Assembly (NCBI GenBank): GCA_002224055.1 | Contig: AZLU01000087.1 | Span: 1 to 64,000, forward strand | Direction of reading: 5' to 3' | Source of the DNA: Pezizomycotina sp. ARF18 | Lineage: Eukaryota; Ascomycota | DNA length: 64,000 bases | In this document: positions 25,423 through 60,632 of the stretch, piece by piece | How the letters are laid out: each line of letters begins with the position of its first letter | How positions within the stretch are numbered: position 1 is the stretch's first letter | Position numbers and translations under genes: made by a program | Notes under the pieces: generated by a model | What the model was told of the DNA's origin: nothing | The model's input: only the letters and a program-made list of their open reading frames with translations | The model's database searches: none

Positions 25423-26373
25423 TCAAAATCTCCCAAGCCTCCAAATCGCCTTCGTTCGTATCCACCTATCAGACATCCTCTCCAGATCTTCGTTTTCTGA
25501 CCTTAACCGTTCCATAGCTTCTCGCAAGGAATGCATCAGAATTCTCAATCGGTCTTGCTTCGCTTCATGTAAACAAATATCCTCTTCGAGCGTGCGGTTC
25601 TTCTCGTCAACTTGCTCCACCCTCGACTTCCAGTACTCCGTGTCCGACCTCTCTTGCAGAAGTGCGGCCTCCTTGACGCTGAGCATCTCCTTCAGGACAT
25701 CTACATGAGCCTCCGGGACTTCTTGCAGAGCTTCGGCGACCTCCTTGCAGCTGTGACCGAACAGACAGCACGCGGCGACGATGACATTTCGGAGGGCACG
25801 ATCGCTGGAAGGAGTCGTGCTATAGGTCGTCCGTAGGATTTCGGTGAGGCCTTCCTGCCATGAATACGGCGGATGAGACTGGAACTTATTGATCGCGAGG
25901 TCCTTGAGCTTGGTGATGATGTACTTGTCACCGAGAGCGTATACTTGCGCGTTGATGAGCTGCGAGGCGACCGTGGAGCTTTCGAGTCCGGAGAAGCCGA
26001 CCTCGGTAGTTGACGGCGGGGCGTCACTGTAATCTGCCAAGTAGAAAAAGTTAATCATCCTTGCGACGTTCTCCGGATCGTCTTCCTGCAGGTCGATAAC
26101 TCCGGACGTTGCCTCCTGTGGGCAATGGTGCAGTAAAGTTAGCGCTGATAATTACCCGTTAGATCCAGCAAATGACCGCGGCAGAAAGACTTCGTGCGAT
26201 ACTCATACCTGGAAGTTCCCATCGGCGATGCGGGCGAAGTACTCGCTCTGCGTGCAGATCACGGCGCGATGGACTTTGAAGGTTTCGCCGTGGCAGATGA
26301 CCTGTAGGTCGGAGTACTTCTCAGACTCCCTCAGGGACGCGACAGCGTTCGTGATTGGATTGTTCGGCTCCAT
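25423..26373 (-). CDS. Intact two-exon BTB/POZ-domain protein (copy 10)
   Basis: This is the only family member that is open throughout. Exon 1 (26,373-26,209, 55 codons) starts MEPNNPITNAVASL and carries SEKYSDLQVICHGETFKV, HRAVICTQSEYFARIA and ends DGNFQ. The 93-bp intron (26,208-26,116) has donor GTATGA, branch GCTAACT and acceptor CCCACAG, phase 0. Exon 2 (26,115-25,423) adds EATSGVIDLQEDDPENV, RMINFFYLADYSDAP, LINAQVYALGDKYIITKLK, LRTTYSTTPSSDRALRN, VPEAHVDVLKEMLSVKEAAL and a coiled coil (ERLRSENEDLERMSDRW), for 285 residues. BTB domains dimerise and often recruit cullin-3 ligases or act in scaffolds; the coiled coil suggests oligomerisation. The substrate is unknown. It is divergent to copy 11 across a 328-bp shared spacer. 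Confidence 0.88.
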
Positions 26374-31040: not shown

Positions 31041-32400
31041 TTAGTAGCACCTACGATTAATTACGTCTGCAGCTCTTGAACGCGAGATCCAGCATACTTC
31101 AAGACGTACACTTTCGAACTGACCAGTCACCAGGATCAATGTCCGTAGAAAAAAGAAAAATAAATAGACCGTTGTTTTGGGCATGGTAATGTTAAAGGTA
31201 GCAAGTTACTCAACTACCTCGAATACTGACGCTCTTATTGCCTCATATATGGTGCGAAAGCCTAGAGTTCTACGAGTAAACTTTTTCGTGTGCGAGTGTT
31301 TAAGATTCAGGTTTTTTCTCCTATCTCTTGACACTGTCTTCAGAGCCCGGGTTATACTCTAAACCTCGTAGGGTCAGAACTTAAAGTTCAGCGGAGATGA
31401 ATTAATGGCGAGAGCTTTGGAGGGAACTTTTTTATGATTCTTCCATGATTGATTTATCAGCTGTGTTGACTCGGATTCGACGACCCAGCGGGTCCACTAA
31501 CTTAAATCAATCCTCGCCGCACCTAACGCCTCCCAACCACTGTTTGAACGCTCCCATAATCGGGCAAAGTATATGAGCGCGTTGGACATCTCCGTTGTCT
31601 ATGTTGCCTTCAAGGCCTCTCTAGCGGCTTCAACCGAGCTGGCAAGTGTTCTCCAAACCCACAAGCTAATAATTTGGTATATTCATGAGCGTAAACTGTA
31701 AGAATTTCCATAACTTTCTCCAGCGTAATAAAAATCAATATTTCATGGGTTTCAGCCCACAGCGTCGATAATTATAATCCAAATAGACTCCGGCGAGTGA
31801 TTATCAAGGCATAGGCGATAGCTTGGAATGGCTCCTCAAAATTTGTATAGGCTCAAGAGGCTGGTCAGGAATTCGGCCTAGACTCAATATCAGCACCCAA
31901 TGATTCGAGACTAGTAGTGGCAGCCTCGACCTTTTGCCCTTACTTAGCAGCTCCTTAGCGTGCCACTGGTGGGAACGGTCAATGATCTCGAAATTAGAGG
32001 AAATGAAGGCGGTGTTCGATCAGTAGGCTTGACAAAAAGTGGGTTCAATGTGACCGATAGATAATAGAAGTCTCAACAAAACCTAACTCAAGTCTAACGC
32101 TGTAGTGGCGTTACAATCATCCATCTTCATCTTTGGCTCACGCCCTTTAGTGGATTTACCTAGCCTAAACCTGCTCCGAAAAGTGAAAGGGCAGATGGAA
32201 AACTACACATGTGTACTCTTGGTGATTTTAACGACAACGAACATGACCAGGACTAGTGAGATTTATCGAGTTTTTGTTTCGAGAAACGTTTTGATCATAG
32301 CGTACCTACGCGGCCAGCGGCCGCAAACGCCGAGGTTGACATACCGGAGACCTGCCGAATTTCCACAATTTCACCCCGGAGGCGACCAATGCAACAGAAT
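31041..32400. other. Intergenic, no supported gene
   Basis: No gene is recognised. A possible beginning of a longer relic preceding the first isolated tail at 32,401 was sought and not found. Confidence 0.35.
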
Positions 32401-32505
32401 CCCCCCCTGGACCTTGACGGCGGCGTCCAATGTCATTGGAAAATTCGAAAGGATAGCCCCGAGATTCCGCATCTACCGTCACCGCCGCAGGCCTGCACAG
32501 CCTAA
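32401..32505 (+). pseudogene. Isolated C-terminal tail of the MCR family (tail 1)
   Basis: One open frame of 34 codons to TAA at 32,503-32,505 reads PPLDLDGGVQCHWKIRK then DSPEIPHLPSPPQ. This is the complete tail module with no frame break, but no M-C-R head is found in the 1 kb before it. It is either a truncated unit or the last exon of one. Confidence 0.65.
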
Positions 32506-33095
32506 CTGGATTACGCTTCAACTAACAGATGGCAGTAAACATTTCAATCATCCAGCTTTTTGGTCATTTTGGGTCTTTACCGATATTTTTTTTTTTCAAG
32601 TTTGATTCTTGTTTACATTTCTGCGTACTTAGTCGGAGTCATAGATATATATATATATCTAGATATTCTTCACTTTCAACAAGTTGCAATTTTACAGCAA
32701 TAAACATTCGAAGTCCGTTACTTTAGTTGTTTATGCGGAGATAAATTTTGACCTAGAGGCATGCGCTTGTAGTGTGCGAATCCAATAAACCGAATCCTCG
32801 TTCACATCTTCTTATTCTCGTTGTCACTCAAAAATATTGGCGTACATACTACATTAACTGTGGCCGCGACCATTGTAACGGTTTACGACAACTCATGAGC
32901 GAATTTTACGGAACCTCAACCGGAGTCAAATATGCGCAATGGTTGTGACCTTTTTTGCGACTAGTAACGGTGTTCATGACGAATCTACGGCTACAGCGTG
33001 GGTCGTTCGTGCCGGCGGCCGCCTCGGCCGATCAGTATTTCGTAGCCTGCCCATTTCCCGCAGTTTGACCTCCAGGGGCAGCCAGTACAATAAAT

Positions 33096-33197
33096 TCCTC
33101 CTTGGGCCTTGATGGACTTCAATATCGATGGAGAATCCGGAAGGTAGGCCTGAAATCCCCTGTCTGCCATTGCAACCGCGGCCGCCGGACAACTTGA
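33096..33197 (+). pseudogene. Isolated C-terminal tail of the MCR family (tail 2)
   Basis: Reads SLGLDGLQYRWRIRKVG; the adjacent frame keeps GRPEIPCLPLQP. The module is the same as tail 1 with one shift. No cysteine-rich head upstream. Confidence 0.6.
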
Positions 33198-33502
33198 AGC
33201 CTCACTTTAGAATTCTGCAATTGAGAGCGTTTCAAGGCCCTTTTCTGTCTCCGTTCCTATTTCCCCCTGAATTACATCTATATCGGCTAACCCATCCGAG
33301 CCCTTCTTTACTGGAATTAGAAAAAAAAAGAAAAGAAAGAAAGGCGCCCCAAAAGCTCTCGACTAATACTAGATATAATTATCTTCAAAAGAGGATGTGT
33401 AAAATATCTGGTTATTTTTAGTGTCCGCGGGACTGAGATATACCACACGCTATCTCATGTGATCGGGCGAGCTGCCGAAACCCTATCTGCCAGCCGCATC
33501 AA

Positions 33503-33600
33503 GGCCCTCCTTTAGTCTTCGATGGCCTCCAATGGTAGACGGAAAATTCGAAAGCTTATCCGGAAATCCTGGATCTTCTCTACCTCCAGCTGGCGTGTGG
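33503..33600 (+). pseudogene. Isolated C-terminal tail of the MCR family (tail 3)
   Basis: Reads GPPLVFDGLQW, a TAG, then ENSKAYPEILDLLYLQ. The PPL.(F)DGLQW and PEI..L signatures match the other tails. No head upstream. Confidence 0.55.
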
Positions 33601-34020
33601 CCAGTGCGGGAGGAACGTGACTTAAATGGGGTATTTTTACAGTAACTGAAGAATAATGGTAGTAAACACTGCTGTCAGCTCGTCAGCAATTTTGGATCTT
33701 TCTTATGAGATTTTCTTTTCTTGCCTTTCCGAGGTTGTGGGGTTCTTATATCGCATATACCGCCCTTGTTCTATAATATAAATACAGTACCTGAAGACTA
33801 TGGATTTTCCAACGAATAATCATTCAAATATCTGATCTTACGGGAACAAGCTCGATATGAGAAGTACAAAAGACACGAAGAATATATCCCATATCGAGTA
33901 ACCTTGAACGCTTTTCTATATGATTTTCAGGTTCAAAACACAAGTTCGAAATTTTGCACCCTGCTCGACTGCATGATGATAAGAACCGCTTTCCGACCTC
34001 ACTTATGCCCCTTTTCTGGA

Positions 34021-34138
34021 GCACCACATCAACATCAAATCAATATTCCTTCTAAAGAACGTATAGAAGAAATGTCGCTACAAAACCCGAAAGTATAGTC
34101 CCGAGATCCCCCTCTACCGTTACCACCAGATAAACTAG
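34021..34138 (+). pseudogene. Isolated C-terminal tail of the MCR family (tail 4)
   Basis: Weaker match: CRYKTRKYSPEIPLYRYHQ in one frame ending TAG at 34,136-34,138, corresponding to the ...W.I.K...PEIP.LP part. The PPLD part is eroded. Confidence 0.4.
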
Positions 34139-34971
34139 CGATATTATGAGCTCCTGTGGGAAATTCTCGTAAGAAAGGGGTAGCCAGGGTTCCGCAACAG
34201 CCGTTGATGTCCAGACCCGAGCCCGGCAAAGAATGACTATGCCTCGGTCGACAGAGGTAACGTTTACCTAGGAGCATCCTCAAAGATAATCAAACCCCGC
34301 CCGTTGCGAGTAAACCGCCTTCACGCATTACTTCCCAATCTGAAACAATTCTAGCCCGATCCTCCAAATTGTCCTTGAATCCAAAAAGTACATGTTGGCA
34401 TAATCGTCAAGCTGGTTAAGGATGCCGCTACATGCCGGTCTACATAGTAATCCTAGGGATATAGAGGATGTACATGTCACATGGAGAGAAATGTAGAAAT
34501 AGCAGCACGTGTTACAACTCCTAGCTAGTTCCTAACTATTTTCTTCACAAGTCTTCCGGTTTTTGATTTTCAAAATTAATTCCGGAGTTGTTCCAAGAGT
34601 TCAAACCCAAGGTTTAAATAAGGCTCCACATATCATAAAGCCTTCCTACTCAATCATTTGTCGGGCCATTTACGCTTTAGTTTCAGTGTAAAATTTTCAA
34701 AATTTAATCCTGTAACACCATGCCGGATCAAGTCGTCAAACTAAATTCGACAAGCGCGAGCTCGAGAGGCGTACAAACTCTACTGGGATTTCCCCATGAT
34801 AAATAGCGGCAATGTACTACTACTACTACTACTACCAAACCTCTTTCCATCTTCTCAAGCGCTATATCTATATATCCCATCCACCTCTTCTCTATTTGTA
34901 GGGACAAAAAAACATTTAGGAAAGCTAGGCCGAGAATACTTTTAAAACGGATTTACACGATACAGAAAAAA

Positions 34972-35487
34972 ATGTGTAGGGACGTTTGGGTATTCTTTCC
35001 TGCCCCAGAACCGAGCCAGATCCTCAAAATATTATACGCATCGTCCAAACCCGATAGACTGCGGAAGAAGAGTCTGTATCCACCGCCGGAATAAGCTAGA
35101 GGACCTAAACTTTCTAGGCACCCGACTAAGACGTTGAGGACGAGGACTGGATCTACTACGCTGACTGCAACTGCGAATACTGCGATCAGCTGAGCCGCAT
35201 TATCAGCCAGCTCAGAAGGGTGCCGGAGAACTCACAAAGGAAGTTTGGAATTTTCGGGCGGCTAGTGACTGCATTCATTGAGATACCTACGCCAGCAGCG
35301 GCCTCAAATGTTTAGACGTCGAACTCGCATATATACAACGACTTCGTCCATTTAGGCAAATTCCTGCCAATGAATACCAGTACAGCTGGACCCTCCTCTA
35401 GACATCAACGGTGTAGAATGCCGATGGAAGATTCCAAAGGTGGCACCTTTAATATCTTCTCACCGGCCCAGTTCTATGGCGGCGTGA
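34972..35487 (+). pseudogene. MCR-family unit A, broken
   Basis: The ATG at 34,972 gives MCRDVWVFFPAPEPSQ; an offset frame carries the family EPDPQNI-like segment. The central module DEDWIYYADCNCEYC then DQLSRIISQLRRVPEN is clear (compare C-D-C-E-Y-C in unit G). The tail PPLDINGVECRWKIPKVA is in another frame and ends at TGA 35,485-35,487. Several shifts and stops intervene. The role is unknown; the paired cysteines suggest metal binding, which is inference. Confidence 0.6.
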
Positions 35488-35694
35488 AGATAAGCACTCT
35501 TCGAAGAAAAGAAGACCGTCGGCATTACTTTTATCCATTATCCCGCTTTGTCACTTCGTGACGTTTTTTCTTTTTGCTACTTTTTCTTATTCTTCTTACA
35601 GAAGATTTTCCGTCTGTCCTGTTGCATCGTTCGCTCTTCTCAATCTCCAATAAAGTTTAGAATCTATATTTCTTTTCCAATTCTCATATAATTC

Positions 35695-35940
35695 TTAATA
35701 ACTACTTGATATCCCCGGGGTTTCTGCCTCAGCGCCAACTATTTTCCTGAACAAACCGAAACCACTGGCAGCCACGTCGGTGGAAAAGCTAATCGAGACT
35801 TCAGGCGTGTCCCGCTCATACTTCTCTGTGATTCTTGTAATAAAGTTTGCTAATTCATAGCCTGTTAAAACAAGCTCCTTGAAACTTAAAAGAGTCGTTA
35901 CTGAGCTAGATGCAGTGTATACCCCCAACGTTGGAAGCAT
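35695..35940 (-). CDS. Unrecognised short ORF inside the array
   Basis: An 81-residue minus-strand frame (MLPTLGVYTASSSVTT, then VLTGYELANFITRITEKY, DVAASGFGLFRKIVG) has balanced, protein-like composition and lies opposite to units A and B. No family is recognised and no intron signals were identified. It could be a chance frame or one exon of an unrelated gene. Confidence 0.25.
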   Translation of the reverse strand: MLPTLGVYTASSSVTTLLSFKELVLTGYELANFITRITEKYERDTPEVSISFSTDVAASGFGLFRKIVGAEAETPGISSSY

Positions 35941-36460
35941 TTAAGTATAAGTCACTCTCAATCATCAGTTAACTTCAACAAAGCTTTGCATTAGTGTATG
36001 TTTTGGCCTGTGAATACTTAGCGTAGGGATATACGCCGCCACATCAGATAACTGTGGTAACGAAAGCACATTGAGGATCGAGTTCAAGAACTAATCCCAG
36101 AGTACATATTTGCTTGAAGGCGGCTAATTGAAGTTACTCAAGGGCATCATTGCAGACTTGTCCAAAATATGTGTCCTCAAGTCAACTTGAGTAGATTTGC
36201 TGGCTTATCGAGGGCATGTGAATATTCTTGCGTTATAATCAATCTTGTGAAGTCTATACAGAGCGAGAGAATTTGAAGGCAAGTTGCTTTCAGAGAGATA
36301 TGAAAAGCACCAGGTTACATGCTAGCTTGAGCTTGGAACTTGGAAGGCTTCCTGAAATGGAGTTTACGTGCAGTCCCAAAGAAGATCTCAGTCAAGTTTG
36401 AAAATAGTACAAGTATCTCTGGTTGATGTTAATAAACAGGGCTCTTCGAGCTTTTATTAA

Positions 36461-36530
36461 TCTTTCCTTCCTTCCTTCCTCTTTTCCTTTCCTTTCCTTT
36501 TTTTTTTTTTTTTTCTTTTTTTTTTTCTTT
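36461..36530. repeat. Polypyrimidine tract before unit B
   Basis: Almost pure C/T tract with repeated TTCC units followed by long T runs. Comparable tracts follow units C (about 38,822-38,880) and D (about 40,404-40,470), so it seems to be part of the duplicated spacer. Confidence 0.7.
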
Positions 36531-36592
36531 GCCAAAAATAAGATTTTTTTCCTGAAAGAAGCTGCTCTGACGATCCAAGAACACACTTACAG

Positions 36593-37089
36593 ATGTGCCG
36601 ACACGTTCGAATATTCTCACTTGTCCAGGGGATGAAGCGGATCCTCAAAATATTGCGCGCCTCGTGGTGCATCATGTGGACTGTCAACTGCCTGATCGCC
36701 ACCACAACCTCTTAAGGGTGTATTCTACATGGAACGCGATGTTTATACGCAGAGACCACTACCGACGTACTACATCCACTGCGACTGCGAAGATTGCGAT
36801 CGGCTGCGCCGCCTTATAGCTGATCTGAGCAGAGCCTTGACAAAGCTAGCGGTCACGCTGACCGAAGAGGCTTCGGATCGTCGTACGATTATTCCGGAAT
36901 ATATGACCGACCTGCGTGAGCTGCGGCCAATTTTGTTTCGCAGCAGCGATTTACGCACTATACAAGGCCCACTGAGTTCAAGGAATTTAACACCAAAAGA
37001 CCCCCAGTGTACCAGATCCTCCCTGGATATCGATGGTCTCGTATGTAAATGGTTATCGAAAAGGAGGAGCCCAATATCCTGGCGCTAGC
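36593..37089 (+). pseudogene. MCR-family unit B, broken
   Basis: The ATG at 36,593 gives MCRHVRIFS; a shift later the family segment NILTCPGDEADPQNIARL appears. From about 36,729 an open frame runs TYYIHCDCEDCDRLRRLI, then ADLSRALTKLAVTLTEEA, to SSLDIDGLVCKWLSKRR near 37,080, covering both the CDC-x2-C module and the start of the tail. The second half is well kept; only the head is shifted. Confidence 0.65.
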
Positions 37090-37900
37090 GTCAAGAGAAA
37101 CCTAGATACGCTTTTCTTGTTTGTGTTACAAGGACCGAATCAGCGTCAGCAATCTCATCGAGGTTACACTCATATTAACAAAGACGTAGCTTGCCTTTCT
37201 ATATTTATGACCGTCTCATCCGTTGTACAATTTTTCTTTAAAAAGTAACGACCGAAAGAAGAAGAAAAAGCAAAAGAAAATGATCAATTCATGGACGAGA
37301 TTTATATAATGCACCCGTCATAGCTGTGACATTTATAATAACGCCCTGATAAAATACTTCATATTGTTAATTTGTTTAGTCTCCGGCAATCACTTTTTCA
37401 AACAGCAATATGCTATAGTACTGACCATAAACTATAAGATGATACTCAAAAACAGTCCAATAGTGACAAACTTGATCATTAGTTTGTAATTTTAAATATT
37501 CGTTCGTTATCGATATAGACCTTACTCAAGCTAGATAGAATGCATGTAGTTACCTGTCCCTCGCTGAAAAAACCGGGAAACATAGCAGAACGGAAACCTA
37601 ATCTTGTCGCATCATAATTTCGTGTATAAAATGATTCTGTTGATGACCATTCTTATTGTAAATATATATAGATATATATTTAGCGGGTCGGGAAAGTAGA
37701 ATTGAAATATTAAAGATCGAAAATTTATAATTGCTTAATTAATTTTGAAAGGAAATTGTGAAAATTGAAATCTATTCAGATTTCACATCCCCAAACCCAA
37801 AACATCAGGATGCAAAAGCGGATATATGTACGAAATACTCAATTTGAACAATACCAAAGCATATTATTTTGTAGTATGAGCTCTATCGGAAACCGAGAGT

Positions 37901-37908
37901 TATATAAG
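37901..37908 (+). promoter_or_regulatory. TATA-like box upstream of unit C
   Basis: TATATAAG lies 159 bp before the unit C start codon, at nearly the same distance as TATAAAA before units D (150 bp) and F (167 bp). Confidence 0.4.
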
Positions 37909-38059
37909 TGCTCAATTTAACAAACCGTACAGTTACCAAATTGAAATAACTTAATATCTCAATCACTTTTCCAATATCGCCTTTTCTACATAGCCATTTC
38001 TAGCAACTAATTTTGGTCCATCTTTCAACATATCTTAGAATATAAGGATTCGCAAAAGT

Positions 38060-38576
38060 ATGTGTAGACATCTAACGATATATCTTTCCTGTCCGAAGAC
38101 TCCGTCATAGTTCAAAACACAGCTCAGGGGTCGAACGGAGACTAGTTGCATGCAACTGTCGCTAGATTGTACAACTGGTAGAGATCCATTTTCTCGGCAC
38201 TAGGGACCTATTGCCGAAACTCACACGGCGATATATTACTCCCCTGCTATTTCGAGTATTGCTACAACCTACGCTATATGATAGCCGCTTCCAAAGAGCG
38301 GTAAGAGAGTTGCGTAACTCCGAAAACCCAGACCGCCGTGTGGGAATATTGGGAATATTCCTGCGGCTTTACAACAGATTCATCGAAAACTTGACAGCAC
38401 CAAGAGGCTCCCATACCTACAAGTATAAGGATACACTTGCAACGCCATCTTCTGCGATTTCGTGCGGAGGGGAGCCAATCCACCACGACCCTCCGCTGGA
38501 CGTCAATGGCGTCAAGTATCAGTGGACCATCAACAAGAAGAGTGCTGAGATCCCAGAGCTGCCGCTGCCACAATAG
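38060..38576 (+). pseudogene. MCR-family unit C, broken
   Basis: The ATG at 38,060 gives MCRHLTIYLSCPKTPS followed by a stop. Offset frames hold IAETHTAIYYSP and the eroded C-Y-F-E-Y-C-Y-N-L counterpart of the CDC-x2-C module. From 38,211 an open frame ends with HHDPPLDVNGVKYQWTINK then SAEIPELPLPQ and TAA at 38,574-38,576, a perfect tail. Confidence 0.65.
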
Positions 38577-39155
38577 AGTAAGTTGGCGCTTGAGAATATT
38601 CTATAGGCGCTCTTCAATCATGCTTCTTGCTGCATTTGTTTCCTCGTAGGATTTCCTTTGTGCTTAAATCTGTTAGCTCCATTTTGTCTGTAGAATCCAA
38701 GTTGGCTTATTCTAGTAGCATAAAAATAAAAGGGTCGCTTTCGAGACGTCACACTCCGTATTGATTGCATTTGTTTTATATATCAGCTACAAAGCGCGTT
38801 TGCTCACTTAATCTTGTGTAGTGCTTTCCTTTCTTTCTTTCTTCCTCTCTTTTTTCCTTTTCTTTTTTCTTTTTCTTTCAATTTATTCCAAAATTTTTTT
38901 GTTCGGTCAAACCTTACAGCGCGCACGTTGCCCCGCAATCATCGATACCAACAAATTAATCGCGATAGCCGCCTCTCGTCTCTTTCGCCTCCAAATCTTT
39001 CGCAGATAATGATCAGTAGATTGTAAAAAACCCCTTCCCCATCTGCCCATTACTACACTTCCTAGCCACGCAAACACCAATCCGCAGAGCTTAAGGCGGT
39101 AGATTGTGGAAGAAGGCCCTCAAGGTCGTTTCACCAGCAAAACATATTTTGCTTT

Positions 39156-39179
39156 AAAAAAAAAAAAAAAAAAAAAAAA
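39156..39179. repeat. Run of 24 A between units C and D
   Basis: Uninterrupted A homopolymer, 24 bases. Could be a microsatellite or the tail of an unrecognised retroposed fragment. Confidence 0.85.
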
Positions 39180-39509
39180 CGTGTTGTGTAATAAATAGCA
39201 GTATTAGGATCCTCTGGATGTAATAAAAAAAAAGATAAATGCTAGATTCGAATCCGAATTTGAAATTAGCTCTCTTGAGGGTTAAAATGGATAGTGGGAA
39301 GTTGAAGTTGTTCATCCCGAGGTGTTACATCAACCTGGAATATGAAGCATTGCAGTATAATGTAAATTTATGTGCTAATATTCCAGGTAAAATAGTACTC
39401 AAAGCAAAAGAATACGTGAGGATGAGTTTGGACAAGGGCTTGCTCATGGAAGTCGTTCAAGCTTGACTTTTGAAGAACTGTCAAGCAATACCTCAACAGA
39501 ATTCACGAT

Positions 39510-39516
39510 TATAAAA
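39510..39516 (+). promoter_or_regulatory. TATA-like box upstream of unit D
   Basis: TATAAAA lies 150 bp before the unit D start in a block similar to that before units E and F (a gene-proximal TTAACAG/CTCAACAG motif, then the box, then ATATT.CATAAC). Confidence 0.45.
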
Positions 39517-39659
39517 TGGTATATTCCATAACTCTACCTCCGCAATTTAACTATTTTTCTCATCTCTTCTAAGTCTGACCAGCAATATACTAACACATTC
39601 CCTCACAACTGAGAAACGGAAAAATTTCTAATCATCCCTCAACGAATTACTTTCGAAAG

Positions 39660-40197
39660 ATGTGTAGGCTCGTATCAATATACCTTCGCTGTCCCAGGGA
39701 CTGCACCAATTCTGAAGACATAGCTCGCTATACCGAACATACGGCCAGGGACAATGGGTGCCGCTCAGGAAGGGCAGGATGCGCGAGGCAAGGCTGGTGA
39801 AGATTTACTATATCGGCACTCGAGATCTATTCGCCGAAACACATTCAGATATGTATTTCTTCCCTGCGACTGCCAACTCTGTGTCGACCTACGGGCTGTT
39901 GTGGATCGCGTCCATCGCGCGGCAAAGAGACTTGCCAATCAATGGTTAGACGAATTTGGAGACGCCTGAAAGACCATGAAAATCTTTTCGCTATATTTCT
40001 CCGAATATCTACGGGACTCAGACGAGCAGCTCCGTGGTTTAAGGGCATAAGGGTCTATCGTGAATAGGAGACTTTCAGCCGTTTGCAGTGGAACGAACTC
40101 CGAGACATAATGACCCCCGCTGGACGTCAATGGCGTCAAATATCACTGGACTATAAACAAGGATACTCCTGAGATCCCAGAACTGCCGCTGCCATAA
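39660..40197 (+). pseudogene. MCR-family unit D, broken
   Basis: The ATG at 39,660 opens MCRLVSIYLRCPRDC, then TNSEDIARYTEHTARDNG and CRSGRAGCARQGW, the longest clean head after unit G. After a shift, VKIYYIGTRDLFAETHS is seen, and in a third frame FLPCDCQLCVDLRAVVDRV. The tail DPPLDVNGVKYHWTINK then PEIPELPLP ends at TAA 40,195-40,197. Two or three shifts separate it from an intact unit. Confidence 0.68.
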
Positions 40198-41188
40198 TAA
40201 ATTGATCAGACACTTGAAGGTATCCCTGTAAGTTTACTTTCTAGCTTTCCATCTATTATTTCTTTTTCTTCTCGTTTAGGCTTATAACTACTTCATGTTT
40301 ATTCGGAAATCTCCAGGCACTTAGTAACTAATTACCTCTCTCCTTTGTAGGGCCCACAATATGAATTTTCTTGTTTTTCGCAACTATATTACACACTGTT
40401 ACTTTCTTTTTTCTCCTTTTTTACTATAATTCTTCCAAACCTTCCTCTTTTTCTTTCTTTTTGGGTCATTCAAAGGATCGGGACTCACAGCGCGTACATT
40501 TCCCGCAACCCTTAGTATCCTTCTAGATACAAAATAGCGCCCTTTGTTGTCGTTCTAAGGATAACAATGCCTGGATCTAATGGACTGATTATCCTCTAGA
40601 GTACAGCAGGTGAATAGCCAGAGCTTGAACTGCAAGCTCGTGAAGAAATCCCTCTCCCGTATCTCTAAATACACAAAGAAGATAGTTTATAATATTTTGA
40701 TAACCAGTTGCGTCGCGATCTTACAAACATAAAATGTGAACAGCGAAATGTAATATTGAAATTTTTTTTATTTAAATCCATCAAGATGTCGGAAGGAAAT
40801 TTTTCATGGGGAATGATCTCTGCCGATTAAAAAGAAAGTCATATTGTGAGAAGTGAAAGGTCGGGTATTTATTCCAGGAATATCAAAAGCAAATTGCTAC
40901 AACTGAATCCTGATTTCACTAGCCGAATAGCGAGGTGTCAAAGGGAATTGTCCGTAAGACATTATTCAAGTTGAATATCGGCACAAACTCATGAGCCATA
41001 GCTTAACAGGATTCGCAATTGTAAAAGCGTATAGTATATTGCATAACTCATACACTTTACCTGATTATTAATCTCTATCAACTCATCGTGCTCCCCTTCA
41101 GAGCTACATTGGTTATCCTAATTCATTCCTCTATTAATTCACAAAGCCAAAACCCTCCCAATCGCCAACCACAAAGCAGTTGCCGAAC

Positions 41189-41769
41189 ATGTGCAGGATC
41201 TTGACGATGTATCTTCGTTGCCCTAAAGACTGCGACAACACTGCGGAGATAGCTCGCTACTCTCAATATAGAGCCCATGGTATCATGCCAAGCAAGAAGC
41301 GGTAGTTGTACGCGGGTGCGACCGGTAGCGATTCACTACATTGGTGCCGAGACCTGTTCGCCAAAATTCATTCACATATGTATTTTCTCCCATGTTATAA
41401 TTGCGTATACTGCTATAACTTACAGCCTTTATAGGCCGCTATCGGCAAGCGATACCGCACCTGCCTCCCGTGGCCTTGGAGGCAGGAATCGACGAGGCCA
41501 TCCAGTGCGAGGGCCATGGGTACTTTCGTACAACTCTTCACAAGATTTTAAATCAGGTGGTGCAGAGGCTTCCTGAGTTGCGTGGTGCAAGGCGGTATTT
41601 TAGCATCCGCGAATTTTTGGAATTTCCTCCCGAAGAAATTCCGGTACACCACGATCCTCCATTGGACATAAATGGTGTCAAATATCGATACACTATAAAA
41701 AAGCCTGAGGATGACCCGGGGATTCCAGATCTGCCACGCCCACACCAACTTCCTGCATCGCAGCCATAA
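41189..41769 (+). pseudogene. MCR-family unit E, broken
   Basis: The ATG at 41,189 gives MCRILTMYLRCPKDCDN then TAEIARYSQYRAHG and a TAG. The same frame later shows RDLFAKIHSHMYFLPC and YNCVYCYNLQ, the CDC-x2-C counterpart with one Cys replaced. The last frame (41,470-41,769) is open and ends in VHHDPPLDINGVKYRYTIKK then PEDDPGIPDLPRP. A stop and shifts in the middle break the unit. Confidence 0.65.
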
Positions 41770-42333
41770 ATACGCTTTCTGATACGTATTTGGGGCAAAG
41801 TTATCGACCATTTTGTAGCTGAAAAACCGAAATTTACTTTCGAATAGAAGTATTTAATATCAATGTATTTATAATGCTGATTTATTGCACAAGCTGTTCT
41901 CTATATTAAGGCGCGGAACTTATCCAAGTAATGCTGATTTTTCATGGATACCAATTTCCAATTCTAACGCTCTATATTTATGTAGATAGCGTACTAGACC
42001 AACTCGAGAGGACAGATGCGCCTAGATTCCGTGCTCCGTTCAGCTCATTAAACACACTACCAAGAAATAACTGACCTCCTAGCCACATATGAAAGGACCT
42101 TTATCAACAATTTCAAATTCCGATTTATCTATATCCGGATTTTGAAGGAAATCGTTGGAACCGGTACATTACGTACACGTTATACCTACCCAAGCAACAA
42201 GGCGAAATCAAACATAGGTGTGCATATAATACACGCCTCTGACTTTTGAAGTTGGGTAGCTTGTTCATTGTACTTCGCATAAACTTGAATAACCATGAGA
42301 TTCATAAGGCTATGGCTTAACGGACCTTCCGGG

Positions 42334-42340
42334 TATAAAA
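42334..42340 (+). promoter_or_regulatory. TATA-like box upstream of unit F
   Basis: TATAAAA lies 167 bp before the unit F start codon within a block resembling those of units D and E (GGCTTAACGG, then the box, then GCATATTG). Confidence 0.4.
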
Positions 42341-42500
42341 TCTATAGGGGCCTGCATATTGTTGTCCACTTCACTGTCCCTTTTTGTTAACTTTTTCCTC
42401 TCTTCAAAAGTCTAGAAGTAATACCCGAATCCGCGTCCCCATACATCCCAAGAAATAACATTTCTCATCGACCCCCCGAGTCACCGAATTACTTTTAATT

Positions 42501-43037
42501 ATGTGTCGATACCTCAAGATGTATTTGTTCTGTCCTCAGAACGGCGAAAGCACTCAAGACATAGCTCGCTACGTTGAACAGCATTACATTCAGAAAACCT
42601 GCGATTGTGCTTATTCTAAATTAGAAGAGGTTTAATACGTTGGGATTCGTGATCTACTCGCTGAGACTCATAGCAGGATGTATTACCCTCCTTGCTATTG
42701 CGAAGACTGCCAAGGCCTACGTGCTTTGGTGACCAGCTACCAGGAGGCCCTAGGTCAAACGCCCGCAATGCTCCCAGGCGGCCAGGCCATCAAAATCTTC
42801 GCTGACCATTTTACAAACTGGCTGCGATCTTTAGATGAGCGACATCCTGCAATGATCGTCCAAGGACTTATAGGAAGCTGTATCAGTTCCGACCACTTCC
42901 CACGTCTCCAAGTCAGCATGATCCTCCGCGGGATGCAAACGGTGTTAAAATATCACTGGACAATAAAGAAGCCTGAGAACAAGCCTGAGATCCCTGAACT
43001 GCCCGAACCATCTCTATACCAGAGACATCAAATCTAG
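42501..43037 (+). pseudogene. MCR-family unit F, one internal stop
   Basis: A single frame of 178 codons from the ATG at 42,501 to 43,037 is interrupted only by TAA at codon 45 (42,633-42,635). It shows the full pattern: MCRYLKMYLFCPQNG (C2, C11), STQDIARYVEQHYIQ, CDC at 34-36, GIRDLLAETHSRMYY at 48-62, and C-Y-C-E-D-C at 65-70, then a helical middle and a tail KYHWTIKKPENKPEIPEL. Comparison with units D and E suggests codon 45 was CAA, so a single C-to-T change in a CpA context could have made the stop. Just before the tail, a pair of compensating shifts hides QHDPPRDANGV. Confidence 0.7.
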
Positions 43038-43391
43038 TCTTATTTCATAATACGCACGTATAATAAAACTGTCATTAGTATTCTCCTCATAAGAATTGCT
43101 TGTATCGATCAATCTATAATCGATGTTATCAAGAACGTACTCGCGACGCAAGCTTAGCACAATCGCCGGGCTAGATATCAAGGACGAATCTCACTCAGGA
43201 GGACAACTACCAGGACCCTTAAAGCTGCACACAGCCCATTGATCATGTTATCAAGAAATCATTGAATCTCCTGTATACTCTTAGATAATTTATACGAGGC
43301 GTTCGGTCTAAGTCGTGATGCTCTAATTTAGACGCTTAAGAAGTTTACTTGTCAACTTCCCATGAAGCTGCTACCCCTGTGCTGCCCATAT

Positions 43392-43802
43392 TTAAAAGAT
43401 TCTCGGAATGTGAAACCTTTTTTCGAACATCGGAAGCTTTGAGAAAGTTGGAATGAGGATGTGATACTTGGAGATCACTCTTGAGTTGGCCCGCTTCTCG
43501 TCTTCAGTAATATCAAGCAGAGTGAGCTTGAAGTTGGTGAAGCCACCAACTTCGTGCCTTGAAATGCTGGCTCTGATACACGAATTTTGGAGCGACTGGC
43601 TGCCCTTCACAAATTATAGTACTTTGAACTGATGAATCAGTCGAACTTGAGCTTTTACGCGAAATCTCAGTAGCATTATTGAATGGTCCTCCAAAGATAT
43701 ATACCTCTTTAAGAGGCCCACCTTTCCCACAATTACAAAGTTTGCCATCTTGAAAATTGAAAAGTCCAGAATTGCTCTTCTAGGATACTTACGAACATTC
43801 AA
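43392..43802 (-). pseudogene. Unrecognised minus-strand gene, divergent to unit G
   Basis: From the ATG at 43,802 one frame reads MNVRKYPRRAILDFSIF, then MLLRFRVKAQVRLIHQF and KVL, meets TAA at 43,614-43,616, and carries on in the same frame with GSQSLQNSCIRASISR and FKLTLLDITEDEKRANSR to 43,392. The composition is protein-like on both sides of the single stop. It starts only 41 bp from unit G and is transcribed away from it. No family is recognised. Confidence 0.3.
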
Positions 43803-43843
43803 AGAGATCTGTTATAAAACTCACTTTAAACCTAACACGGAAG

Positions 43844-44431
43844 ATGTGCCGATACGCGACGATTTACCTAGCGTGCCCAAGCGGGGAGGCCGATATAAAC
43901 GACATTGCCCGGATCCACATTACCCCAACCCTTGAATGTTCCTGTATTCGTTACGGAAAAATGGAGGCGCTCTGGATAGGTAGTCAGTACCTTTGGGCCG
44001 AGGACGAACATTACAAGTACTACTTGCATTGCGATTGCGAGTATTGTATTGACTTACAAGAAGTCACTGGTCGCCTCCGAGTCAGAGAGCCCGAGCCGGG
44101 TGAGCGAAGAATAGAACAACCCGCACCTCCGTGTGGAGGACCGTGACGCTCGCCGCTCGAGACAGACTTTCAATGATCGAACGAGCCCCAACCTAAGAGC
44201 CACGCGGGAATTAAACGATTTTTTCCGGTCACTTCGACATCGCCGACACAGGGTACACGCAGAACGATGATTACGAGAATTGTGGGAGTTTCAAGTCTTA
44301 GAGGATTTCCTGCAGGACCTCCAGAACACCATGATCCTGCACTGGACTTGGAAGGAGGCTTAAAATGCCACTGGAAGGTGCCCAAGAGACCGCGGACTTC
44401 AATTTGCCAGCACCGACCAGAGAAGCGCTGA
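43844..44431 (+). CDS. MCR-family unit G, best-kept head (cysteine-rich, unknown function)
   Basis: The frame from the ATG at 43,844 is open for 100 residues and shows the cleanest version of the head: MCRYATIYLACPSGEA (C2, C11), DINDIARIHITPTLE, CSC (32-34), WIGSQYLWAEDEHYKYY, HCDCEYC with Cys 63, 65 and 68, then DLQEVTGRLRV and a stop at 44,144-44,146. The tail PEHHDPALDLEGGLKCHW then KVPKRP lies further on in another frame and ends at TGA 44,429-44,431. A donor-like G|GTGAGC near 44,099 could remove the stop by splicing but no matching acceptor was proved. TATAAAA sits at 43,813-43,819. The cysteine pairs suggest a small metal-binding domain; this is inference. Confidence 0.55.
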
Positions 44432-48016: not shown

Positions 48017-49158
48017 CGGCACCTAGAACAGTGCTACCACGAGCCATAATGAACTATCCCCGGCCAGGGAGCGGTATCGGAAGCTCGCGAAGATCGAATT
48101 TATCTGCATTTTATCACCCCGACGTCGAGGTTCTATCCGATCTTACTCGGAGGAGACAGTAGGTTCATCGAGGCGCAGTGCTATGATACAAGGTGGCAGT
48201 TTTTGGGAGAAGCTAAAGATAAAGAGGAGAAGTAGTCACATTACCAATGCGACGAATAATACCGTCAATACGTTCGGAAGACGATAGAAAAGCTTGAGAT
48301 ATTAATACTCCTTGAAACATTCTGTCACGATGGCCCACCGTAAAGCATACATAGTATTCCAAGAAAATTAAAGGGGAAGTTTGTCTTTGCAACGTAGGTT
48401 TTTTTGGATCCGCATTAAAACTATTTATTGTATTCTAGTCAGGTTGATGTATCTGTCGTTCTATATATATGCATATTCATTAGCTACGGTGTTAGGGGCC
48501 GAGCTTGGGGCAATCTTTTGTAAATTAGGGCGGGCCGAAGTCGCTTGAACCGGATTTGATTGAGGCAATGCCAGTACAGCGATCTCCAGACTCGCCTTGG
48601 GTATTACCCATCTGCACCTTAGCCCGTCTTCTAGAACAAGTGGGGGTATAAAGGTATCGGCGCGCTGTGCTCATCAAATCCAGGGAAGGAACCGACGTGA
48701 GTGATGCTCACAGGGGGATGTCTGCCATGATGGGTTCTGCCCATAGAGGTATCTGTAAACCCCATTGAGCCCGGTCAAGAGTACTTGCAAGGATGTTGGC
48801 GGAAGCCCGGACCATCTAGGTCTTCTCTCGCCCTTGCGACGCCGTGGAAGCCGAGGGGTACGATTATTCTCGCGGACTCGGCGTACTATGGCCTACAGTC
48901 TCCTACAGTACTCGCAGTCGCAACGAACGTAGTAGATATAGAAATGGTCCTCGGCCCATTTGTACTAGCAGCCTAGCCAGCGTACTTACGGAACCAGGAT
49001 TGCCCTACAGCGTAGTTGGTTGCATGGGACCGTGATGACTATAGCTCGAGATACATTTCTCAGATCTTCGCGTTCGCCACTGGGACAGGTGAAGTATCCG
49101 TTACGTTCCTACATCTTAAATTGTAGTCAGTAATGCTATCTAGGATTTAAAAGTGTGT
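48017..49158. other. Intergenic, left flank of the retroelement
   Basis: Unique-looking sequence of ordinary base composition, in contrast to the element that follows. Frames at 48,785-49,035 have no recognisable content. CpA and TpG are common here. Confidence 0.35.
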
Positions 49159-49163
49159 TCATT
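49159..49163. repeat. Target-site duplication, left copy
   Basis: TCATT directly before the left LTR, identical to TCATT directly after the right LTR (59,106-59,110). Confidence 0.85.
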
Positions 49164-49344
49164 TGTTGTTGATGAAAAGGTTATGTAGCAGAATCTATCT
49201 CACCAAGTGATTCTCCTCTTATTGAGTAAGGAAAACGGGGTAAGGTAAGATATATATATCCTTAGTAAAGATATAAATTGACTCTAAGTCTTTACCGAGG
49301 TTATTACCCGGCTAGTTAAGGCCTTAAACGTCCTCACTCTAACA
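49164..49344 (-). repeat. Left LTR (3-prime LTR of the minus-strand element)
   Basis: 181 bp, begins TGTTGTTGATG and ends TCTAACA. Its outer (left) part keeps G and C where the other LTR has A and T; its inner part is RIP-altered. Confidence 0.85.
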
Positions 49345-52300
49345 ATACTCCGGCTCGGGCATAGCCTCTGCCGGGCGAAGATTTAGTAAGAAAGATCTAT
49401 TCCTTTATTATATAAATCACTAAGTAATATATAAAGCTATTATTCCGCTAGATATTAAGGCTCTGCTAGTTATATAGTACTAAGCCTTAGGAACTCTTAG
49501 CTAGATTCTTAGCTTTTAATTCCCTCTATTCTCTTTATCCTTAATTAGTAAGACTTAATTAGTATAGATATAATATTTTAAGGAAATAGTATTCCTTTAT
49601 TCCGTTTTATAGAGCTACTATACTTTAAGCGAGGATCTATCCCTTTATTAAATAAGAGAATAAATAATTTACTATATATAAATACGTACGGAGATTTATC
49701 TTACGCGTTAAGCGCTTTCCTTTAATATAAGATCTTATTTAGATTATTTATCTAAGGCTCTTTAGCTTTATATATTAAAGTAATAATATATATAGTAAAG
49801 GAGTAGTAAATTCCTTTAGTAAGAATATATATAGGATTATATACGTAGTAACGTTACTATAAATAGCCGAATACGGCTATATATAGGTATAGTTACGCTT
49901 ATCCGTTCTAATCTAAAGTTTAATAAGTAGTAATAATTAGTATAGATACGATATACGCTAAGCGTATAATAGTAATAACTAATAATAAAGTAAACGAATT
50001 AGGAGAGTATAAAATAAAATAGCCTTATAGAAGAGGCCTAGATTAATCTATAAAGCTTAAAGAGTAAGGAACGACGAGATTTAGTAAGTAAGAGGGAATA
50101 AAGAAGAAAGGATATATTTACGCGTTCCTCTTTTCCTTAATTTCTTTTTTCTTCTTCTCGTATTTTCCTCTATATTAGAGGAGATCTATTAATTTTATTA
50201 CCTCTTAGCTCTATAAACGAAGCTTTTTACTTATCTTCTTAGATTTTAAACATTATATCTATATCCTCTATTAATATAGTAAATACGCGTAGGTCTAACT
50301 TTCCTTATAATCTAAAGTATAGGATTAGTAAGAGACGTATATATCGATATCTTACTTCCTTACTATCTAGTCGCGAGAAATTTCTGAAGCTTATTCTAGT
50401 GCGCTAGCTAACTATAGTCCTATAAGGACCTAGAGATTATGAGACCGTCTTTAATAACGATCTATCGTTCTCTAGTAAATCTATAGAGGTTATTAGTAAC
50501 CTTATAGCTAGTACCTATAGTCCCCGGTCTAGATCGCTTACCGCAGTAAACGCGCCCGTTTAGGGAACGTTCTAAAGTATAAAGATATTCTTAAGATAAT
50601 AAGATACGGAAAGGTAGCTAGATACGGCTATATCCCTTACCGACGTAAGAGTATAATATATTAGATAAGTAAAGAGCGTAGGAATTAGACTCCTATATCG
50701 AAGTTAGCCTTCTTTAACTATAGGTAACGTTATCCGTCTTTACTTAGGATATAAAGAAGATCTATATATATTACCTAGCTATCGGTAATAGTACGACTAT
50801 AAAAAACTAGTAGGAAACTATTATTATAAGTACTTCTCTTAGTTTCTATATTCTTAGAATTATCTAGTTTATTTATAAATCTTATACTAACTAAGCATAT
50901 ATAGTATCGCTAGAGGGTATCCTAAATACTATCCCTAAGCTAATATAATTAAAGCTTAGTTAGAGGATACTAATTAGGATTTTAACGATAAAAATACCGA
51001 GCTATATTAGGTTAATACTCCTTTTACCCCCTTACCGATAGTACTATTATCGATTAGCTACTTCTCCCTAATAACTTTACTAAGCCTAATTAGTAGTATA
51101 ACGCTATCTCTACGGGCTTAGGGACTATAGGGAGAAAAACTAGTATAACTAGGAGATCTACCGGTATTATTACTAGGCTTAGTAAAACCGGTACTATAAG
51201 TAAGCCCGGTAAAACTAGTACTACCGATACCGGAGGTAAGACTCCTAAGGTAATTAGAGGGACTAGAGATATAAGAAGATATTAATAACTAATATTATCG
51301 ATAAAAGTACTAGTATAACTACTACTAGTAGCGGTACTATAGGTACTAGTAGTAGAAGCGGAATTACTATAGGTAGCGCTATAGTAAGTACTAATAGTAG
51401 TAATAAAGCTATTACTACTAGTAAAACTAGTAACTAAGAAGTTATTATTATTGGAGTTAAGCGCGTTAGTCCTAATTAATAGCCGGATTCCGTAGCTAAG
51501 AGGCTAAAGAGAGAGGGTCTAGCCTCTAGTTTTAGTATTCCTCTTAGTTTTAGTAATAGCGGTTATTATTTATAATAGGTAAAGCGACCTTTACTAACTA
51601 TATTAATTTTCTATTTCTAAAGCTAGGATAGACTCTACCTTAGGTAAATCGATAAAAACTTATTTAAAGTTCCTCGCTACTTTAACCTAGTAGTAGAACG
51701 AAATTTTCTACTAAAACGCTAAAAAGTAGCTTCTTACTCTATTAAATCTTAAGGACTTTATTACTAATATAGCTTAGCCTAGGTTCCTACGCCTTTAAAA
51801 AATACTAAGATTAGTAAGGCTACTTTTATTAAGGAAGCCGAAAAAGAAAATAGAGCTAGTAGTAGATTCAGTTCTTAAGACGAGCCTAAATAAAGACGTT
51901 TATCCTAGATAAATATTAAACTTCCCGATTAGAGTATTCGCCCTATCTCTAATTACTATAATAAGTTATAGACTCTCGCTATATACCTTAACGTAGTTAC
52001 TAAGTTCTAGACTAATATTCTTACTCTTATAGGATTTATATTAACGCCTTCTTTAATAGTAACTAACTTATCCCCGAATAGTTAGCTAAGATTAGATAAT
52101 TTCTCTTCTAGTATAAGATATAGATTTTTAAAATATATCTTCTCTCTATAAATACCGTAAGTATTTACCTATCCTACTAAGTAAGCTAAGGGTTCGCCGA
52201 TACTAACTAGTCTAAATAGAGAAGCTACCTCTATTATCTAATTTTATATCTATTAAGGATATAGTTAAGCTATTATAAGGTCTAGATAAGGTTTATAAAT

Positions 52301-58300: not shown

Positions 58301-58923
58301 TATAAGGTTATATTTCTTATCGGGGTATCTATTTTTTCGGTCGTACTCTTGGTTATTCTTACCGCCCTAAGGGTAGCCGTTACTTATATTACGGGAGAGG
58401 AATAGTACTAGTAGGGGGTAAAATTTCTTACTAAGAGCTACGATCGTTTTCGTATAGTATTTAGTATTTAAGATAAACTTACTAAGTATATACCTTTTTC
58501 TTTTTAGTTTTAAAGTAGTCTATAAGAGACTAGACTAGTTAAAATAGTTTTTCCTATTTTAAGCGAGGATAGAACTACTAGTTTTAGACGAGGTTATAGG
58601 ACGATATTATCTCTTATTAGATTTAAATCCGCTACCGCGCTTCTTATTAGTTATCCTTAGTAATAAAGAACCGATTTTAGTAAGTGATGCTAGGATTCTA
58701 TAGAGTCTATAAGAAAGAAATATAGGCCTATAGAGTTTTAGTAAATTTCGTATAGGGTAAGCGAATTTTCTATATAGAGCTAGGTAAGGTAAAACTTTAT
58801 AGATTCTATAAGGAGTAAGGATTAAATTTTAGTAATAATAATATCTATCGGAAATAAATAATATCCTCTAATAGATTATGGCTCGGTTTATTCTAAGTTA
58901 TAGAGTTACTAAGACTTTTAATC

Positions 58924-59105
58924 TATTATTAATAAAAGGTTATATAGGTAGAATCTATCTTATTAAGTAATTCTCCTCTTATTAAGTAAGGAAAAGCGGG
59001 GTAAGGTGAGATATATATATATCCTTAATAAAGATATAAATTGACTCTAAGTCTTTACCGAGGTTATTGCCCGGCCAGTTGAGGCCTTGAACGTCCTCAC
59101 CAACA
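58924..59105 (-). repeat. Right LTR (5-prime LTR of the minus-strand element)
   Basis: 182 bp, aligns to the left LTR over its whole length, ends CACCAACA. Here the right (outer) part is unaltered and the left (inner) part is RIP-altered. Confidence 0.85.
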
Positions 59106-59998: not shown

Positions 59999-60632
59999 TT
60001 AAGCTAACGTCCCGAGTGTAGAATACTCATTCAACCTTAATGAGCTAGGAATTTGGAATATACGGCAAGGTGGTGAAATCCGATGTGGACTTAGGTATGA
60101 CCAATGAGCCTTCAGCCCTTTGGAGCCTTCCAGCTCAAGCGGGGCCTTTAGCTTTACTGGGGCAAAGTCTTCAGCAAATGGACGAAGTTCCAATGCATGC
60201 CGAATGTTAACGGGTCTTCGTGTCCCCGTGTTCTCTGAGTGTTGTGAAGATACTGGAAGAATTCATTTAGGCCGGATCTCAGGATTAGCATCCGTGCAGG
60301 TATACATCCGCCTCTCTTTTTCATGGCGGGGTGTAAGTTGAAAGTTGTTCCCAAAGGTTCGCCCCCTTAAAGTAACTCGTTGTGCAACAGCCTTTAACTG
60401 TTGACAGTAGTGACAATCGCACGGGAGATAGTACTTATAAATGTGGTCCTCTGCCCACACGAATTGCTGTCCAATACAGTGGACCTCCACATGTTTGATT
60501 CTGGAGCATGGCTGCTCCGGGCCGAGTTTTTGTGTTGGCATGGCTCTACCGGGGCCATTACGCTGCGGGCGATATTGTCCGGGATTTCTCGGACTCTGGG
60601 CAAGCCAGGTAGACTCCAAGGTCGTAGCACAT
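59999..60632 (-). pseudogene. MCR-family unit H, inverted outlier, broken
   Basis: The ATG at 60,632 gives MCYDLGVYLACPESE (C2, C11), then a shift; an adjacent frame holds EIPDNIARSV. The central part is open and clear: HVEVHCIGQQFVWAEDHIY, then YYLPCDCHYCQQLKAVAQRV, matching units B, D and G. The tail APLELEGSKGLKAHWSYLS lies in a further frame (60,193-59,999). It sits 15.6 kb to the right of unit G, in the opposite orientation, with the retroelement between them. Confidence 0.65.

What the first reader, a model, noticed from the sequence alone, without database searches (positions are those of the whole stretch)
32401..44431. Tandem array of an unrecognised cysteine-rich gene family (M-C-R ... 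C-D-C-x2-C ... PPLD.(N/D)G...W.I.K...PEIP)
Seven head-to-tail units with spacings of 1.3-1.6 kb share an M-C-R start, a second Cys at residue 11 followed by Pro, D/E-IAR near residue 20-23, a C-x-C pair, an (R/W)DL(F/L/W)AE-H segment, C-D-C-x2-C, and a conserved C-terminal tail. Seven or eight Cys plus a His could form one or two small metal sites. I cannot match it to any family I know, and it is amplified locally, as is typical for lineage-specific fast-evolving genes.
Basis: partly seen in the sequence, partly recalled or inferred. Interest (0 to 1): 0.85.

Follow-up and report, generated by a model that had tools for sequence, protein, structure and literature searches.

The report
Graveyard of a cysteine-rich fungal gene family
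A row of broken copies of an unrecognised small cysteine-rich protein gene lies in a decaying stretch of what looks like a fungal chromosome: the family was once real and kept by selection, but no intact copy was found here, so it is an ordinary relic of a possibly undescribed family.

Summary
The repeats are real, and more numerous than reported. Eleven units on the + strand (32.3-44.4 kb) and two on the - strand outside the finding (49.1-48.6 and 60.6-60.3 kb) share parts of a head (MCR...CP...IAR), core (IG.RDL.AE...YY..C.C..C..L) and tail (PPLD.NG...W.I.K...PEIP.LP).

They were protein-coding. In the fitted frame pN<pS in 54 of 54 copy pairs, against 22 and 4 of 54 in the shifted frames; nucleotide-only alignments show a third-position excess (mismatches 209/166/307).

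None is intact. A frameshift-aware fit finds 2-10 stops or frameshifts in each of nine copies with head and core; 16 of 16 simulated intact copies gave none. A neighbouring BTB-type gene is open over both exons, so assembly noise is unlikely.

Pfam, NCBIfam, PHROGs and PDB sequences, three viral-contig scans and one prokaryotic-genome scan gave no credible relative. Fungal genomes could not be searched.

Best reading: a dead tandem cluster of an intracellular, probably zinc-stabilised protein, between a partly decayed BTB cluster and a RIP-type AT-rich block. Both structure models were too poor to use.

The parts
32303..32484 (+). U0: middle/tail relic (tail PPLDLDGG...)
   Evidence: 1 frameshift called
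32817..33172 (+). U1: core + tail relic, head not found
   Evidence: 8 lesions leave-one-out, 2 in the fit
33395..33577 (+). U2: head close to tail, core not recognised, in-frame stops; weak
   Evidence: head; tail; leave-one-out score 66
34067..34132 (+). U2b: short tail relic; weak
   Evidence: 58-base DNA match to U0 tail at 77.6%; leave-one-out score 67, no lesion called
34972..35439 (+). U3: head, core and tail, broken
   Evidence: 6 lesions
36593..37093 (+). U4: head, core and tail, broken
   Evidence: 10 lesions
38060..38570 (+). U5: head, core and tail, broken
   Evidence: 8 lesions; 82% DNA identity with U6 over 104 bases at the tail
39660..40194 (+). U6: head, core and tail, broken
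   Evidence: 6 lesions
41189..41751 (+). U7: head, core and tail, broken; 116-codon open piece 41419-41766
   Evidence: 5 lesions; open piece
42501..43034 (+). U8: head, core and tail; stop at 42633, frame changes near 42863 and 42951
   Evidence: 3 lesions
43844..44431 (+). U9: best preserved; head + core open 43844-44143, then two frame changes before the tail
   Evidence: 2 lesions; end of the tail frame 44431
48563..49113 (-). U10: extra copy outside the finding, three in-frame stops plus three frame changes
   Evidence: 6 lesions
60323..60632 (-). U11: extra copy outside the finding, head and core in different frames; tail not recognised by tblastn
   Evidence: 5 lesions leave-one-out, 2 in the fit
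25423..26373 (-). control, not part of the family: BTB-type gene open over both exons around one GT-AG intron
   Evidence: junction read by eye; exon 1 similar to the BTB pieces; its exon-2 frame has no Pfam match of its own
49151..59100 (.). context, not part of the family: AT-rich block with RIP-type indices, bounded by direct repeats 49151-49337 and 58911-59100 (86% identical)

Best explanation
This is a dead (pseudogenised) tandem cluster of a formerly protein-coding family of about 170-190 residues in what looks like a filamentous ascomycete. Shown: shared head, core and tail in 13 full or partial units; past purifying selection; lesions in every copy that has head and core. Inferred: the family grew by repeated local duplication of units of about 1.3-1.6 kb, and the copies diverged for a long time under selection (silent differences near saturation). 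Selection was then lost at this locus and the copies decayed by small indels and stops, as in ordinary birth-and-death evolution near a mutated mobile-element block. The living protein was most likely intracellular: the head starts MCR with no obvious hydrophobic signal (seen by eye, no predictor run). Its invariant C2, C11, C65 and C70 (with C36 and C67) probably held one zinc ion in a small hairpin/helix fold, followed by a helical linker and a proline-rich tail that bound a partner. That last mechanism is inference.
For: Family and units. Coding past: pN<pS in 54 of 54 pairs in the fitted frame against 22 of 54 and 4 of 54 in the two shifted frames; third-position excess, 209/166/307 mismatches over 697/695/670 columns, in 10 nucleotide-only alignments of 8 region pairs, chi-square 52.7 (the pairs share copies, so the p-value is only a guide). 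Broken: leave-one-out lesions U3 6, U4 10, U5 8, U6 6, U7 5, U8 3, U9 2, U10 6, U11 5, against 0 in 16 of 16 simulated intact copies. Not assembly noise: the BTB-type gene at 26373-25423 reads open over both exons, and the rhodopsin-like frame 17026-17763 is open for 246 codons. Not RIP inside the array: TpA/ApT 0.82-1.01 and (CpA+TpG)/(ApC+GpT) 1.02-1.23 over 32-46 kb, against 1.67-1.95 and 0.04-0.06 over 50-58 kb.
Against: U9 has only two frame changes, both in the variable middle. Eleven one-intron GT-YAG models would leave U9 open; shuffled sequence gives a mean of 9.1 such models and none of the eleven has both a canonical donor and a branch site, so this neither supports nor excludes a spliced U9. 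Intron models were enumerated for U9 only. The codon alignment was fitted to the protein profile and leans towards conservation; one search was added for that reason, but its codon positions still come from the same fit. No transcript data. Zinc binding and fold are not supported by the two poor models.
Confidence: 0.8

Rival explanations
1. A mostly dead array with one live gene: U9 (or U8) is still expressed, U9 through an intron in the variable middle.
For: U9 head and core are one open frame of 100 codons; the fit needs several in-frame insertions in the U9 middle; GT-AG models exist.
Against: Such models are about as frequent in shuffled sequence (mean 9.1 against 11) and none has both a canonical donor and a branch site; part of the U9 middle aligns to other copies' middle in a different frame; U8's stop lies inside a stretch where U8 is three residues shorter than U9, not longer.
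Confidence: 0.12
2. Assembly indel errors make intact genes look broken.
For: Most lesions in the fit are frame changes (44 of 52 listed); the neighbouring D-erythronate-dehydrogenase-like gene also changes frame several times.
Against: The BTB-type gene is open over both exons and the rhodopsin-like frame is open for 246 codons in the same window; in-frame stops occur as well (U1, U2, U5, U6, U8 and three in U10); in U0, U2 and U2b whole parts are not recognised.
Confidence: 0.05
3. A non-coding repeat or mobile-element piece with accidental open frames.
For: Multi-copy, near a mutated AT-rich block.
Against: Frame-specific constraint. No repeated element ends were found around the units: at a minimum length of 40, one direct family (the U5/U6 tail) and one low-complexity inverted pair. 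DNA similarity hardly reaches beyond the reading frames, except short flanks upstream of U6, U7 and U8.
Confidence: 0.03

Closest known systems
Small fungal Cys proteins that begin 'MC' with a second Cys about ten residues on and later CxC/CxxC pairs (recalled from memory; no database entry or call)
   Same: MC start, C11, later C-x-C and C-x2-C, no obvious signal peptide (recalled resemblance)
   Different: C-P instead of the recalled C-G-H after the second Cys; I do not recall the PPLD..W.I.K..PEIP tail in them; not tested
Fungal birth-and-death tandem gene clusters (general kind, recalled)
   Same: Local head-to-tail copies, strong divergence, decay, near a mutated AT-rich block
   Different: Here each copy with head and core is broken
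BTB/POZ-type cluster in the same window (PF00651: E 2.8e-06 on 8415-8882, and E 0.0014, just under the cut-off, on 411-854)
   Same: Neighbouring local amplification; similar pieces lie in different frames in some copies
   Different: No sequence relation seen; at least one BTB-type copy is still open over both exons

Membership tests
Any Pfam-A / NCBIfam / PHROGs family | Match above the curated cut-off, or at a clearly significant E-value, with a conserved piece | tested here: not met
   Pfam: 7 of 10 pieces without a match at E up to 10; best DUF4240 at E 0.0012, 19.5 bits against a cut-off of 27, on a U8 stretch that includes the frame-shifted part. NCBIfam: 3 of 8 family pieces with weak matches, E 0.027-0.18, 11.6-13.9 bits against cut-offs of 162-428. 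PHROGs: 2 of 8 pieces with weak matches, best E 0.18.
Protein family with a solved structure | Sequence match to a PDB chain | tested here: not met
   U9 head/core best E 2.1; core profile best 1.3; tail profile best 3.2
Zinc-binding small domain (treble-clef or knuckle type) | Four clustered Cys/His in a confident fold | tested here: inconclusive
   Cys conserved but model mean pLDDT 39.6, pTM 0.27
Functional protein-coding gene | Open frame from start to stop, with or without introns | tested here: not met
   0 of 13 units has head, core and tail in one open frame; a spliced U9 is not excluded
Formerly protein-coding family | Frame-specific constraint between copies | tested here: met
Small fungal MC-start Cys proteins (recalled) | Sequence similarity to named members | not testable with these tools
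   No fungal protein or genome collection available; no whole genome is held for the window

The most novel reading that the evidence does not exclude
An undescribed fungal family of intracellular Cys-rich proteins (MC-x8-C-P head, IG.RDL.AE...C-x-C-x2-C core, PPLDxNG..W.I.K..PEIP tail), with living members in related fungi, that was amplified and then lost wholesale at this locus while a neighbouring BTB cluster also decayed.
Probability: 0.4. Interest if true: 0.45.

Novelty: new member of a known kind. Interest (0 to 1): 0.3.

Why it matters
It shows that an apparent orphan gene cluster, read by eye as living, is a pseudogene array whose sequence still records long purifying selection. The head, core and tail motifs given here could be used to find intact relatives in fungal proteomes and to name the family. 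The mode of array growth and decay is ordinary.

Tried and rejected
Non-coding repeat: rejected on frame-specific constraint. RIP as the cause of decay inside the array: rejected on dinucleotide indices. Introns: U8's stop lies inside a stretch where U8 is not longer than U9, which leaves no room for one; for U9 an intron is only not excluded; the other copies were not tested with intron models. DUF4240 hit: rejected (below cut-off, includes a shifted frame). Other weak profile hits on family pieces, all treated as chance: ARTD15_N 0.11 and DUF1882 0.048; xylose dehydrogenase 0.027, ATP synthase delta 0.075, MqnC 0.086 and three sigma factors 0.09-0.18; an HNH family 0.18 and phrog_3221 0.42. 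Block dN/dS: of 19 block pairs two were set with the wrong offset (U9-U10 and U10-U11; the second shows pN above pS) and are dropped; the other 17 of 17 have pN below pS. Structure: two models of very low confidence, not searched further; a 16-row alignment made to improve the first was misaligned and not used. Relatives: three viral-contig scans (core, tail, head; 175, 86 and 2 pattern matches) and one genome-contig scan (core; 33 pattern matches) confirmed no relative. Papers: six searches were answered and listed ten papers in all; only the listings were seen, no paper was opened, and by titles and abstract starts none describes this family. Correction: an earlier count said that the rhodopsin-like gene 16700-17763 is intact. 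It is open only from 17026; upstream an in-frame TAA shows, so it is not claimed as an intact gene.
Full report
What the window is. No whole genome is held for it, and no tRNA (ARAGORN) or Rfam family was found. The gene at 26373-25423 has a GT-AG intron (junction read by eye). A fungal rhodopsin domain (PF20684, E 2.1e-13) lies at 17026-17763, and BTB/POZ matches lie in 8415-8882 (E 2.8e-06) and 411-854 (E 0.0014, just under the cut-off). The block 50-58 kb has GC 0.24-0.32, TpA/ApT 1.67-1.95 and (CpA+TpG)/(ApC+GpT) 0.04-0.06, which by established knowledge is the mark of repeat-induced point mutation in filamentous ascomycetes. The species is unknown to me.

The observation. Scanning for MC(R/K) starts and for core and tail motifs, and tblastn of pieces back to the window, gives 11 units on the + strand between 32.3 and 44.4 kb and two on the - strand at 49.1-48.6 and 60.6-60.3 kb (fits). 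The eight + strand starts are 1312-1621 bases apart. DNA identity between units is low: 57-62% over the longer aligned stretches, 66-78% over short stretches in the tails, and 82% for 104 bases at the U5 and U6 tails. Random DNA scores 33-43 on the family profile in 6 of 6 trials. Leave-one-out scores of the nine copies with head and core are 227-637; U0 and U1 score 189 and 123, and the relics U2 and U2b only 66 and 67, so those two are weak.

Was it coding? One search took 19 block pairs between copies. Two of them (U9-U10 and U10-U11 core) were set with the wrong offset and are not evidence; the second of these showed pN above pS. In the other 17 of 17 pN is below pS. One search pooled 54 unit pairs from the profile reading: pS 0.73 against pN 0.47, with pN<pS in 54 of 54 pairs in the fitted frame and in 22 of 54 and 4 of 54 in the two shifted frames. 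Because that alignment was fitted to protein, one search repeated the test on nucleotide-only alignments of eight region pairs (10 alignments): mismatches 209, 166 and 307 at codon positions 1, 2 and 3. The codon positions there still come from the fit, and the pairs share copies. I conclude that the family was under purifying selection for a long time.

Is it coding now? One search fitted each unit to an iterated profile allowing frameshifts and stops. One search repeated this leave-one-out and with controls: 16 of 16 simulated intact copies, at profile divergence and with one in-frame length change, gave 0 lesions, whereas U3-U11 gave 6, 10, 8, 6, 5, 3, 2, 6 and 5. Of the partial units U0 gave 1, U1 8, U2 1 and U2b 0 (too short to tell). 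U1 and U11 were fitted with 2 each but 8 and 5 leave-one-out, so single lesion positions are approximate. In U8 a stop falls in a stretch where U8 is three residues shorter than U9, which an intron does not explain. U9 is the best copy: head and core are open for 100 codons (43844-44143), then two frame changes come in the variable middle. Eleven one-intron models would open U9, but shuffled sequence offers 9.1 on average and none of the eleven has both a canonical donor and a branch site. Intron models were not enumerated for other copies.

Assembly quality. The BTB-type gene at 26373-25423 is open over both exons and the rhodopsin-like frame 17026-17763 is open for 246 codons, so indel noise at the density seen in the MCR units is unlikely. 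The rhodopsin gene is not wholly intact: an in-frame TAA lies just upstream. The D-erythronate-dehydrogenase-like gene at 45734-44762 (NF043036, E 9.5e-48 on the piece 45385-44762, below the full-length cut-off; PDB 2hrz, E 6.4e-24) changes frame several times, so decay seems regional.

What it may have done. In the fitted reading C2 (9/9), C11 (9/9), C65 (10/10) and C70 (10/10) are invariant and C36 (7/9) and C67 (8/10) nearly so, with Y61 10/10, L73 10/10 and G48 9/9 (profile numbering). I infer one zinc site made from the head pair and the C-x-C-x2-C, then a helical linker and a proline-rich partner-binding tail. The models that might have shown this were too poor: mean pLDDT 39.6 with 8 sequences and 49.9 with 6. 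Their low-confidence secondary structure (in U9 numbering strands 40-45, 49-53 and 58-60 before the C63-x-C65-x2-C68 motif and a helix 66-76; helices in the U7 linker) fits the idea but is not evidence for it.

Comparison. No credible match was found in Pfam-A, NCBIfam, PHROGs or PDB sequences, and no relative in viral or prokaryotic contigs. Neither contig collection is made of fungal genomes, so the family may well have intact and even annotated members in fungi. A resemblance to small fungal MC-start Cys proteins is recalled, not tested.

Verdict. A real former gene family, with no intact copy found in this window; an ordinary relic of birth-and-death evolution, of moderate interest as a handle on a possibly undescribed fungal family.

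Noticed in passing
38-28934, both strands: Twelve BTB-like loci (tblastn of the open gene's exons and two other pieces, E up to 0.01), some with similar pieces in different frames; one (26373-25423, -) is open over both exons.
   Followed up: partly
49151-59100: AT-rich block with extreme RIP-type indices bounded by 86% identical direct repeats of about 190 bases: perhaps a mutated LTR-type element, lying just upstream of U10.
   Followed up: partly
44762-45734, - strand: D-erythronate dehydrogenase-like gene (NF043036, E 9.5e-48 on one piece) with several frame changes: a probable pseudogene.
   Followed up: partly
16770-17763 and 47090-48013, + strand: Two fungal rhodopsin-domain (PF20684) genes or relics: the first has a long open frame with an in-frame stop upstream; the second matches only weakly (E 0.00068, below cut-off) and lies in overlapping frames.
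   Followed up: no
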